From: a virus
Virus record (IMG/VR): IMGVR_UViG_3300024975_000025
Span: 1-53,775 of that record
Strand: one strand, 5' to 3'
Length of the DNA stretch: 53,775 nucleotides
Made by a program: the position numbers and the translations under genes. This document shows positions 14,805 through 16,127 of the stretch, piece by piece (within the stretch, counting starts at the first letter, position 1; every line of letters starts with the position of its first letter). Below the pieces are notes generated by a model. The model was not told where the DNA came from. It did not search any database and saw only the letters and a list, made by a program, of their open reading frames with translations.

Positions 14805-14867
14805 TCAGCCTTGGCCGGTGTTGGGAATGCCAAGGAGGGCGAGGATGATGTCGACGATGGGGGTCAT
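14805..14867 (-). CDS. 20-residue hydrophobic peptide downstream of a lux-box
   Basis: A tiny frame encoding MTPIVDIILALLGIPNTGQG. Support: an AGGA ribosome site seven bases before the ATG; an in-frame TAG four codons upstream, so the ATG is the first start; a dedicated lux-box-like site 76 bases upstream; and a terminator just after. The centre (IVDIILALLGI) is hydrophobic, so a membrane or amphipathic peptide is likely. No homology is claimed. It could be a LuxR-controlled effector, a small antirepressor or a short toxin. Confidence 0.5.
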   Translation of the reverse strand: MTPIVDIILALLGIPNTGQG

Positions 14868-14891
14868 GAGCAGGTCCTATTGACGTTGTGT

Positions 14892-14909
14892 CGCGGGGGA
14901 AGTCCCGCG
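14892..14909. promoter_or_regulatory. Hairpin/dyad in the leader of the peptide gene
   Basis: CGCGGG-GGAAGT-CCCGCG, a perfect 6-bp dyad with a 6-base spacer, between the lux-box and the peptide start. There is no T-run, so it is not a terminator. It could be a 5' leader hairpin or a second protein-binding site. Confidence 0.5.
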
Positions 14910-14942
14910 TCGTCACTGTGTCGGCCTGACTCAAACTAATCC

Positions 14943-14960
14943 ACTAGCATGGCTGATAGT
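14943..14960. promoter_or_regulatory. Lux-box-like site 1
   Basis: ACTATCAGCCATGCTAGT on the minus strand, an 18-bp dyad with arms ACTA-N-CA / TG-N-TAGT. It fits CT-N12-AG, the LuxR/LasR-type box, and matches site 2 at 16 of 18 bases. An outer C/G pair on each side extends the dyad to 22 bp. It is 23 bases after the luxR stop and 76 before the peptide gene. Confidence 0.72.
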
Positions 14961-14982
14961 GGCCCGTCGTCTCCCGTGCCTG

Positions 14983-15702
14983 CTAACCCTCCAAGATTCC
15001 GAGCGCTATTGCCAGCGCCACGGCCTGGTGCTTGCTCCCCACATTCAGCTTTCGCATGGCGTTCTGGACGTGGTAGTTCACCGTCGCTGCTGACAAGCCG
15101 AGGATCTGCCCAGTCACCGGTGCAGACTTCCCGTGGAGCGTCCAGCGCAGCACTTCGAGCTCTCTGGGGTTCAGTTGGGGCATCTCGGCCGGCGTGACGG
15201 GCGCGATCGGCATGAGGCGCTCAGCTGCTTCGCGGGCGTGAACGACAAGCAGCTGCAGCTCGGACAACAGCCGGACGCGAAAGCGCTCACTCGTGGGTAT
15301 CGGCTGCTCGCGGTCGAATCCGACCAGGACATGCTCGTAGCCAGGCAGATGCAGGGCCGTGGCGGCTCCGCAGCGGTACCCGAATGGCGCCTGGGCATCC
15401 CAGATATCTCCAGCGCCGCCAGTCGTGTACGTCGTCTGGTCGTAGAAGAACGGCGTGTGCCGCGTCATGAGCTTCTGGTTCAGCGGGTCGCGGTGGGCCA
15501 GCTCGGGGTCCCGGGCTACGTCGAAGTAGCCGGCTGGCGTGTTTCCTATGGCGCGCGTGGTCCCCTTAGCATGTCTGTCGCCGAGGATCACCACCATGTT
15601 GATGAGTCCGAAATCGCGGCGGTGCGCGAAGTCGACCAGAGCGCGCTGCAGGTCGTCCAGATCCTGGGCCTGGCTCACGGCCAGGAAGTCAGCCTCTCTC
15701 AT
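14983..15702 (-). CDS. Phage-encoded LuxR-type quorum-sensing receptor (solo)
   Basis: A 239-residue transcription factor with an N-terminal autoinducer-binding domain (about 5-160) and a C-terminal GerE/LuxR helix-turn-helix (about 177-235: LNPRELEVLRWTLHGKS, LSAATVNYHVQNAMRKLNV). Asp72-Pro73 in HRDPLNQ match the conserved DP of the ligand domain. Positions aligning with the TraR Trp57 and Tyr61 ligand residues appear to be Tyr59 and Ala63, so ligand preference may differ. The start at 15702 has a good ribosome site (CAGGTG); one at 15741 would run the coding region through lux-box 2. No luxI lies nearby. Confidence 0.85.
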   Translation of the reverse strand: MREADFLAVSQAQDLDDLQRALVDFAHRRDFGLINMVVILGDRHAKGTTRAIGNTPAGYFDVARDPELAHRDPLNQKLMTRHTPFFYDQTTYTTGGAGDIWDAQAPFGYRCGAATALHLPGYEHVLVGFDREQPIPTSERFRVRLLSELQLLVVHAREAAERLMPIAPVTPAEMPQLNPRELEVLRWTLHGKSAPVTGQILGLSAATVNYHVQNAMRKLNVGSKHQAVALAIALGILEG

Positions 15703-15715
15703 TGCGGCACCTGCG

Positions 15716-15733
15716 ACTATCAAGCATGCTAGT
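15716..15733. promoter_or_regulatory. Lux-box-like site 2
   Basis: ACTATCAAGCATGCTAGT, an 18-bp dyad in the 65-base gap between divergent luxR and the RsaM-like gene. It fits CT-N12-AG and has the same arms as site 1 (ACTA-N-CA-N4-TG-N-TAGT). It starts 13 bases upstream of the preferred luxR start codon, consistent with autoregulation. Confidence 0.72.
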
Positions 15734-15767
15734 TCCCGCATGGCCCGCCGGCCGGCAGACTCGCGGC

Positions 15768-16127
15768 ATGGATTCCCCCAGCGTCATCAGGTTGCGAGCC
15801 GGCGCGTCGGCACGCTGGCGACAGCAGCTGGTGCACCGCCTCACGATGGAGGACGAGGGCGCAGCCGGCCAGCCGCCTGCAGGCGTGACCGTGTGGGCCG
15901 CCCGGCTGCGTGAGCAGATGGCCGTGGTGTCGTGGCGCTGGGTCATCGTCGAGGACGGCATACCGGTGGTCGCTGATCCGCTGGCGATCTGGTCCAACAT
16001 CGAATTCGTCGACGCCGACGCGCAGCCCGTGGGGCCTGGGCGCGTGGTTCTGGAACTCGGGGCACTGGTCTGCGCGCTGCCGTGGCAGCAGCGCGTGCCG
16101 CGCCGTGGACAGTTGCCGGCGGGGTAG
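15768..16127 (+). CDS. DUF4902/RsaM-like quorum-sensing modulator
   Basis: A 119-residue protein read divergently from luxR. The block GVTVWAARLREQ, VVSWRWVIVEDG, AIWSNIEFVDADAQPVGPG and a final ALPWQQ follow the DUF4902 family pattern (Trp-rich strand, SN..L.D..G, LPW end). RsaM, which dampens acyl-homoserine-lactone signalling in Burkholderia and Pseudomonas, belongs to this type, and rsaM genes usually sit beside luxR. The shared intergenic region carries a lux-box. Assigned from pattern and neighbourhood; the protein is shorter than typical RsaM (~140-170). Confidence 0.6.
   Translation: MDSPSVIRLRAGASARWRQQLVHRLTMEDEGAAGQPPAGVTVWAARLREQMAVVSWRWVIVEDGIPVVADPLAIWSNIEFVDADAQPVGPGRVVLELGALVCALPWQQRVPRRGQLPAG

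What the first reader, a model, noticed from the sequence alone, without database searches (positions are those of the whole stretch)
14805..16127. A prophage quorum-sensing module: LuxR solo, RsaM-like protein, 20-residue peptide and two matching lux-boxes
Seen: two 18-bp dyads, ACTATCAGCCATGCTAGT (minus strand, 14943-14960) and ACTATCAAGCATGCTAGT (plus, 15716-15733), identical at 16 of 18 bases. Both have the form ACTA-N-CA-N4-TG-N-TAGT and fit CT-N12-AG. One is in the luxR/DUF4902 divergent gap, the other between luxR and a 20-codon gene ending in its own terminator. Known: LuxR-type proteins bind such boxes, RsaM-type proteins dampen AHL signalling in Burkholderiales, and a few phages (VP882 VqmA, the Aeromonas Apop LuxR) sense host signals. 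Inference: this prophage reads cell density and answers through the peptide and/or the RsaM-like protein, which might also act on host quorum sensing.
Basis: partly seen in the sequence, partly recalled or inferred. Interest (0 to 1): 0.93.

Follow-up and report, generated by a model that had tools for sequence, protein, structure and literature searches.

The report
Phage LuxR–RsaM cassette driving a micropeptide
A temperate phage carries a small regulatory cassette, shared with many Burkholderia-related bacteria and seen in related form in seven other viral contigs, in which a LuxR-type regulator that looks unsuited to the usual chemical signal appears to switch on a tiny peptide, which may itself be the signal or effector.

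Summary
The two matching dyads, the LuxR gene, the RsaM-like gene and the 20-codon gene are all present, and none stands alone. In 61 chromosomal relatives from Variovorax's family, 53 have a lux-type box within 160 nt after luxR (shuffles: mean 2.4) and 51 have a tiny ORF ending in a P-x-x-G/W motif (shuffles: mean 0.8). Box-to-ATG spacing is fixed (median 83 nt; phage 84). The peptides evolve under purifying selection (pN/pS about 0.4). Seven more viral contigs carry the LuxR, six with a matching peptide; at least five have CI/Cro-like genes nearby, as here. In about half of the hosts the peptide has a double-glycine leader and a neighbouring C39 exporter. In the phage's clade it is leaderless. 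RsaM membership is supported by profile and fold. AHL sensing is not: pocket residue W57 is Tyr/Phe almost throughout, Y61 is not kept, and luxI is convincing in only 3 of 60 cassette genomes. So 'LuxR drives peptide' is well supported by comparison; 'reads cell density through AHL' is not; what the peptide does is inferred. No matching peptide family was found in Pfam, NCBIfam or the papers searched.

The parts
14767..14787 (-). terminator-like hairpin with U tail after the peptide gene
   Evidence: AAGCCCGC-CGCGU-GCGGGCUU then UUUC; -14 kcal/mol, z -2.7
14805..14867 (-). micropeptide gene, MTPIVDIILALLGIPNTGQG (20 aa)
   Evidence: AGGA Shine-Dalgarno and ATG 84 nt from the centre of box A, family median 83; matches the sister-clade peptides MSLIDAILVTLGLPRLGG, MKVIDLICELLGLPKLGG, MSLFDLLLEALGLPRNGG; peptides of the family show pN/pS about 0.4
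14943..14960 (-). lux-type box A, promoter side of the micropeptide gene
   Evidence: ACTATCAGCCATGCTAGT; box at this position in 53 of 61 host cassettes
14983..15702 (-). luxR solo, 239 aa
   Evidence: Autoind_bind 44.7 bits, GerE 55.5 bits; up to 47% identity to LuxR solos of Variovorax's family; W57Y, Y61A, W85Y
15716..15733 (+). lux-type box B in the luxR / rsaM-like divergent gap, 14 nt upstream of the luxR start
   Evidence: ACTATCAAGCATGCTAGT; boxes 20-56 nt upstream of luxR in most relatives checked
15771..16127 (+). RsaM-like gene, 118 aa, divergent from luxR
   Evidence: DUF4902 19.4 bits; family profile hits RsaM 4o2h at E 1.2e-6; AlphaFold model (pLDDT 89) matches 4o2h; divergent RsaM-like ORF at 70 of 74 loci
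16434..17057 (-). neighbouring CI-like regulator (context)
   Evidence: PHROG transcriptional regulator 26.1 bits, N-terminal part; no S24 peptidase hit
17137..17424 (+). neighbouring Cro-like regulator (context)
   Evidence: PHROG transcriptional repressor 30.4 bits

Best explanation
This is a self-contained transcriptional cassette, shared with Burkholderiaceae chromosomes and here sitting beside the phage's CI/Cro-like switch. LuxR, probably activated by something other than an AHL, binds box A and turns on the leaderless 20-residue peptide as its main output. It also binds box B in the luxR/rsaM gap to regulate its own expression and that of the RsaM-like brake. The conserved C-terminal [LI]-P-x-x-G part of the peptide is the active part. 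Its most likely use is as a signal or feedback ligand read by the LuxR/RsaM pair: in host versions with a double-glycine leader and C39 exporter a related C-terminus is predicted to be secreted, while in the phage version it would act inside the producing cell. Supported by comparative sequence evidence: the cassette, both boxes, the fixed spacing, the coding nature of the peptide and the RsaM fold. Inferred: direct LuxR binding, activation rather than repression, and what the peptide touches (this last step alone about 0.3).
For: LuxR relatives in 107 of 401 genomes of the family; divergent RsaM-like ORF at 70 of 74 loci; box in 53 of 61 host cassettes versus 2.4 expected and 3 of 61 control windows; peptide-motif ORF in 51 of 61 versus 0.8 expected and 0 of 61 control windows; box-to-ATG spacing 73-99 nt in 58 of 60; pN/pS 0.39-0.40; the LuxR recognition helix differs between the two peptide classes whose boxes also differ; phage LuxR falls in a 100/97 clade whose peptides resemble the phage peptide; micropeptide after luxR in 6 of 7 further viral contigs, with CI/Cro-like genes nearby in at least five of the seven; the two dyads are the only exact box matches on the phage; C39 exporter gene within 3.5 kb of 26 of 28 leader-type and 0 of 24 leaderless cassettes. 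A LuxR homologue that responds to peptides exists: PipR (PMC4981722).
Against: No binding, expression or ligand data. The LuxR pocket keeps D70, P71 and G113, so an AHL-like ligand is not excluded. The link between peptide and LuxR as receptor rests on genetic linkage only. The phage peptide lacks the final Trp of many relatives. No sigma-70-type promoter was found, and no conserved TATAAT-like hexamer appeared after the boxes.
Confidence: 0.6

Rival explanations
1. Phage TF-smORF antirepressor module: the LuxR-driven peptide inactivates the neighbouring CI repressor and triggers lysis, as in the Apop/ARM81ld and VP882 modules.
For: The module lies next to CI/Cro-like genes here and in at least five of the seven other viral contigs. 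The known LuxR-smORF modules work this way (PMC10432266). The CI-like protein has no S24 peptidase hit, so a non-SOS trigger would be useful.
Against: The same peptide family sits on host chromosomes in ordinary gene contexts, often with an exporter. The CI-like neighbours differ among the phages. 20 codons is shorter than the smORFs described in that paper (156 and 171 nt).
Confidence: 0.22
2. AHL eavesdropping: LuxR senses host or community AHLs and the peptide is an output for the phage.
For: Autoind_bind domain and LasR-like profile match. D70, P71 and G113 are kept. RsaM is classically an AHL quorum-sensing brake (PMC10710839). Phage LuxRs that bind AHL exist (PMC6456758).
Against: W57 is replaced in 77 of 78 relatives and in all 8 viral copies, Y61 is not conserved, and W85 is Tyr in all 8 viral copies. 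Convincing luxI in only 3 of 60 cassette genomes.
Confidence: 0.18
3. Lysogenic-conversion cargo: the cassette serves the host, for example as a secreted peptide, signal or bacteriocin-like product, and has nothing to do with lysis-lysogeny.
For: Chromosomal members of the family; leader-type precursors next to HlyD and C39 ABC exporter genes; no other exact LuxR box on the phage.
Against: The phage version and its clade have no leader and no exporter nearby. Recurrent placement near CI/Cro-like genes in different phages argues for a regulatory use.
Confidence: 0.2
4. The peptide ORF is incidental and the transcript acts as a small RNA from a LuxR-controlled promoter.
For: Short predicted transcript with its own terminator-like hairpin.
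Against: Amino-acid motif conserved, pN/pS about 0.4, Shine-Dalgarno and ATG at fixed spacing, tandem repeats of the core in other members.
Confidence: 0.04

Closest known systems
Divergent rsaM-luxR solo pairs, 'type 6' topology (Venturi et al. 2023, PMC10710839)
   Same: RsaM-like gene divergent from a luxR solo without linked luxI; [quoted passage not shown]
   Different: No peptide is mentioned in that paper. Here box A, the micropeptide, the fixed spacing, exporter variants and phage carriage are added.
LuxR-controlled phage smORF modules of Aeromonas phages Apop and ARM81ld (PMC10432266)
   Same: Phage LuxR next to a small ORF that it probably controls; regulatory use in a temperate phage
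   Different: Those need an XRE partner, the Apop one responds to C4-HSL, and its 156-nt smORF inactivates CI and lacks homologues. Here an RsaM-like gene accompanies LuxR, the AHL pocket is altered, and the peptide has a large host family.
VP882 VqmA-Qtip
   Same: Sensor regulator plus small-protein gene on a temperate phage
   Different: Different receptor family; Qtip induces lysis, whereas the role of this peptide is unknown
PipR/OryR LuxR solos (PMC4981722, PMC10134790)
   Same: LuxR homologues with altered AHL pockets; PipR responds to a peptide
   Different: PipR senses external peptides through an importer and controls peptidases; substitutions W57M/Y61W there versus W57Y/F here
Double-glycine peptides with C39 ABC exporters
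   Same: Leader-type relatives have a GG leader, HlyD and C39 exporter genes
   Different: The phage member is leaderless and has no exporter; no Pfam or NCBIfam model above cut-off for any tested peptide

Membership tests
LuxR-type regulators | Autoinducer-binding domain plus C-terminal GerE helix-turn-helix | tested here: met
   44.7 and 55.5 bits, both above cut-off; family profile hits LasR, E 1e-32
AHL-responsive LuxR receptors | Six conserved pocket residues W57, Y61, D70, P71, W85, G113 | tested here: not met
   W57Y, Y61A and W85Y in the phage; D70, P71 and G113 kept
AHL-responsive LuxR receptors | Binds an AHL | not testable with these tools
   needs a solubility or reporter assay
RsaM family | RsaM/DUF4902 sequence | tested here: met
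   single-sequence Pfam score below cut-off (19.4 versus 25), but the family profile matches 4o2h at E 1.2e-6
RsaM family | RsaM fold | tested here: met
   AlphaFold pLDDT 89; 4o2h best hit, probability 1.00, TM 0.71
RsaM family | Adjacent to luxR and/or luxI | tested here: met
   divergent from luxR in the window and at 70 of 74 loci
RsaM family | Dampens quorum sensing | not testable with these tools
   genetic assay needed
Phage TF-smORF antirepressor modules | Transcription factor activates an adjacent small-protein gene | tested here: inconclusive
   boxes, spacing and conservation support it; no expression data
Phage TF-smORF antirepressor modules | Small protein inactivates CI and triggers lysis | not testable with these tools
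   only proximity to CI/Cro-like genes
Double-glycine peptides exported by C39 transporters | GG leader and C39 ABC exporter | tested here: not met
   the phage peptide has 20 residues and no leader; leaderless cassettes have no C39 gene nearby (0 of 24)
LuxI/LuxR pair | cognate luxI | tested here: not met
   none found in the virus record (no control genome rang, so a weak negative); convincing in 3 of 60 relatives

The most novel reading that the evidence does not exclude
A LuxR-type receptor whose ligand is its own gene-encoded peptide: a peptide-based communication or self-timing system in Gram-negative bacteria, with exported versions in hosts and leaderless versions captured by several phages near their CI/Cro switch, comparable in role to arbitrium.
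Probability: 0.28. Interest if true: 0.95.

Novelty: new variant of a known kind. Interest (0 to 1): 0.82.

Why it matters
LuxR solos without a known signal are common. This cassette gives a large group of them one concrete, conserved candidate target: a tiny peptide gene right beside them. It makes the question of what these LuxR solos sense directly testable. It also places RsaM, whose mechanism is unknown, in a setting without luxI. Capture of the cassette by phages near their repressor genes suggests a new input to the lysis-lysogeny decision. Genes of 9-28 codons are missed by standard annotation, so the system is easy to overlook.

Tried and rejected
Single-protein scans of viral and genome collections with the window LuxR and RsaM found no relatives, probably because they rest on exact short peptide matches; whole-genome and alignment searches worked. 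A DNA scan for the 16-base box core gave 12 viral loci, none with a LuxR or peptide match. The peptide alone found nothing in phage records. Closest phages by DnaB lack the module, so it is accessory. The genome scan with DnaB returned what look like chromosomal replicative helicases of Comamonadaceae, useful only to choose a family. Evenly drawn genomes of the wider class gave 0 of 369 at E 1e-36, with no positive control. The second phage LuxR (LuxR2) was not found in 401 family genomes, also without a positive control. Phage-type LuxR alignments found no further viral contigs. Literature searches found no description of the peptides. I considered and dropped a chance-dyad explanation and a non-coding explanation. 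Two loci had wrong automatic peptide picks: L179 was corrected, and L229 has no confident peptide. The CI-like reference I scanned began one codon before its ATG; this should not affect the result.

Full report
WHAT IS IN THE WINDOW. The record is a 53,775-base IMG/VR virus contig with integrase, RecE, DnaB-type helicase, terminase, portal, capsid and tape-measure genes, so it is a temperate tailed phage or prophage. The finding's dyads are exactly where stated and are the only exact matches to the pattern; 200 shuffles gave none. On the minus strand the order is luxR (15702-14983), box A (14960-14943), a 20-codon ORF (14867-14805), then a GC-rich hairpin with a U tail (14787-14767). Divergently on the plus strand lies an RsaM-like gene (15771-16127), with box B (15716-15733) in the gap. 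CI-like (16434-17057, minus) and Cro-like (17137-17424, plus) genes follow.

IS THE PEPTIDE GENE REAL? I searched 401 genomes of Variovorax's family with the phage LuxR. 107 have a match at E <= 1e-16, best 47% identity. I read 76 LuxR genes, the phage's included, with their flanks. 70 of 74 with enough upstream sequence have a divergent RsaM-like ORF; the exceptions are mostly extra copies in tandem luxR arrays. Downstream of luxR, 53 of 61 unique host cassettes have a CT-N12-AG dyad within 160 nt, against a mean of 2.4 (maximum 7) in shuffles and 3 of 61 in windows 500 nt away. 51 of 61 have an ATG ORF with Shine-Dalgarno ending in a [LIVFMAST]P-x(2,3)-G/W motif, against a mean of 0.8 (maximum 3) in shuffles and 0 of 61 in control windows. 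The 61 were chosen for having the RsaM-like gene, and the motif was defined after seeing the peptides, so the controls under the same rule carry the weight. The distance from box centre to ATG is tight (median 83; 58 of 60 between 73 and 99), and the phage has 84. Close peptide pairs change mostly at synonymous sites (pN/pS 0.39 for leaderless, 0.40 for all, uncorrected). In a LuxR tree the phage protein joins L178, L230, L192 and L232 with support 100/97, although its own branch is long. Their peptides are MSLFDLLLEALGLPRNGG, MKVIDLICELLGLPKLGG, MYLIDLIYEVLGVPRFGG and MSLIDAILVTLGLPRLGG; the phage has MTPIVDIILALLGIPNTGQG. Receptor tree and peptide type agree independently.

TWO FORMS OF THE PEPTIDE. 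The leader form (46-72 aa) has a double-glycine leader and a short core such as LPRVGGW, APKGTW or SPVKGW, sometimes repeated (L246 carries four copies of DPSPKGTW). It lies next to HlyD and C39-peptidase ABC exporter genes: 26 of 28 leader cassettes have a C39 gene within 3.5 kb, against 0 of 24 leaderless ones (Fisher p about 1.5e-12). The leaderless form (9-28 aa, for example MICLPRVGW) is mostly one clade nested among leader forms, with at least one separate group (L203, L204, L242). Several genomes with only leaderless cassettes have no C39 match at all. The C-terminal motif is kept without the leader, which suggests that it is the working part. No Pfam or NCBIfam model matched any tested peptide above its cut-off, and literature searches found nothing.

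OTHER PHAGES. A scan of IMG/VR with a LuxR alignment found seven more contigs. Six have a micropeptide after luxR, for example MSFFELIAELLGLPYVGGN and MVQFFLSLIGVLDLPRTGGGGA. Five of these also carry a second, convergent LuxR-type gene with a GerE-like helix-turn-helix, while the first LuxR keeps the ligand domain but has a weak or lost DNA-binding domain. CI-like and/or Cro-like genes lie within a few kilobases in at least five of the seven. No RsaM-like gene was found beside luxR in these contigs. The window phage is therefore the one that most resembles the host cassette. Its closest phages by DnaB lack the module, so it is an accessory.

WHAT THE LuxR SENSES. D70, P71 and G113 are kept. 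W57 is Tyr or Phe in 77 of 78 relatives, Y61 is not conserved, and W85 is Trp in all 37 leader-class LuxRs but Tyr in 20 of 26 leaderless-class LuxRs and in all 8 viral ones. Convincing luxI genes were found in only 3 of 60 cassette genomes; five others had partial matches. None was found in the phage record. So AHL sensing is doubtful and some other ligand is likely. LuxR homologues can respond to peptides (PipR, PMC4981722). The recognition helix (residues 206-213) and the box sequence both differ between leader and leaderless classes, which fits direct LuxR-box recognition, though shared ancestry alone could give the same pattern.

RsaM. Pfam scores the phage protein below cut-off. The family profile reaches BCAM1869/RsaM (4o2h) at E 1.2e-6, and the AlphaFold model's best PDB match is the same structure, probability 1.00, TM 0.71. 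Divergent rsaM-luxR solo pairs are known as type 6 topology (PMC10710839). The additions here are box A, the peptide, the exporter variants and phage carriage.

MECHANISM. Supported by comparison: a conserved cassette in which a LuxR-type box stands at a fixed distance before a peptide gene. Inferred: LuxR activates the peptide; box B serves autoregulation and RsaM control; the peptide's C-terminus is read by the LuxR/RsaM pair or by another partner. Next to CI/Cro-like genes an effect on lysogeny is plausible, and an antirepressor role, as in the known LuxR-smORF phage modules (PMC10432266), is the main rival. No experiment on binding, expression or phenotype was possible here.

Noticed in passing
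L268, L270, L272, L273, L274 (e.g. L270:8524-9285 minus): A second LuxR-type gene with a GerE-like helix-turn-helix, convergent to the micropeptide, next to a first LuxR whose DNA-binding domain is weak or lost; looks like split sensor and DNA-binder roles in phages. The stretch after luxR in four of them holds AAxCTGxCAGxTT-like sequences.
   Followed up: partly
L205, L207, L246, L250, L252, L253, L262 and others: Unannotated family of double-glycine precursor peptides with C-terminal [ALS]P[KR]xxW-type cores, some in 2-4 tandem copies, mostly under boxes like CCTGTAAGAGTTGACAGT and mostly next to HlyD and C39 exporter genes.
   Followed up: partly
G075:C143, G105:C20, G206:C1, G221:C1, G353:C1: Tandem arrays of three to five related luxR genes in hosts.
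   Followed up: no
window 13692-14431: HicA-like toxin (PHROG 87 bits) and HicB-like antitoxin (118 bits) pair next to the module.
   Followed up: no
L184, L185, L191, L194 downstream of the micropeptide: A shared AGCGACxCCTCCATCGCTTTCGTTCGG(C/T)GCCCCCCGAACGT element after the peptide stop, probably a terminator plus a second hairpin.
   Followed up: no
window 20699-22063: Phage DnaB-like helicase is 47-50% identical to genes in Comamonadaceae genomes, hinting at a host in that group.
   Followed up: no
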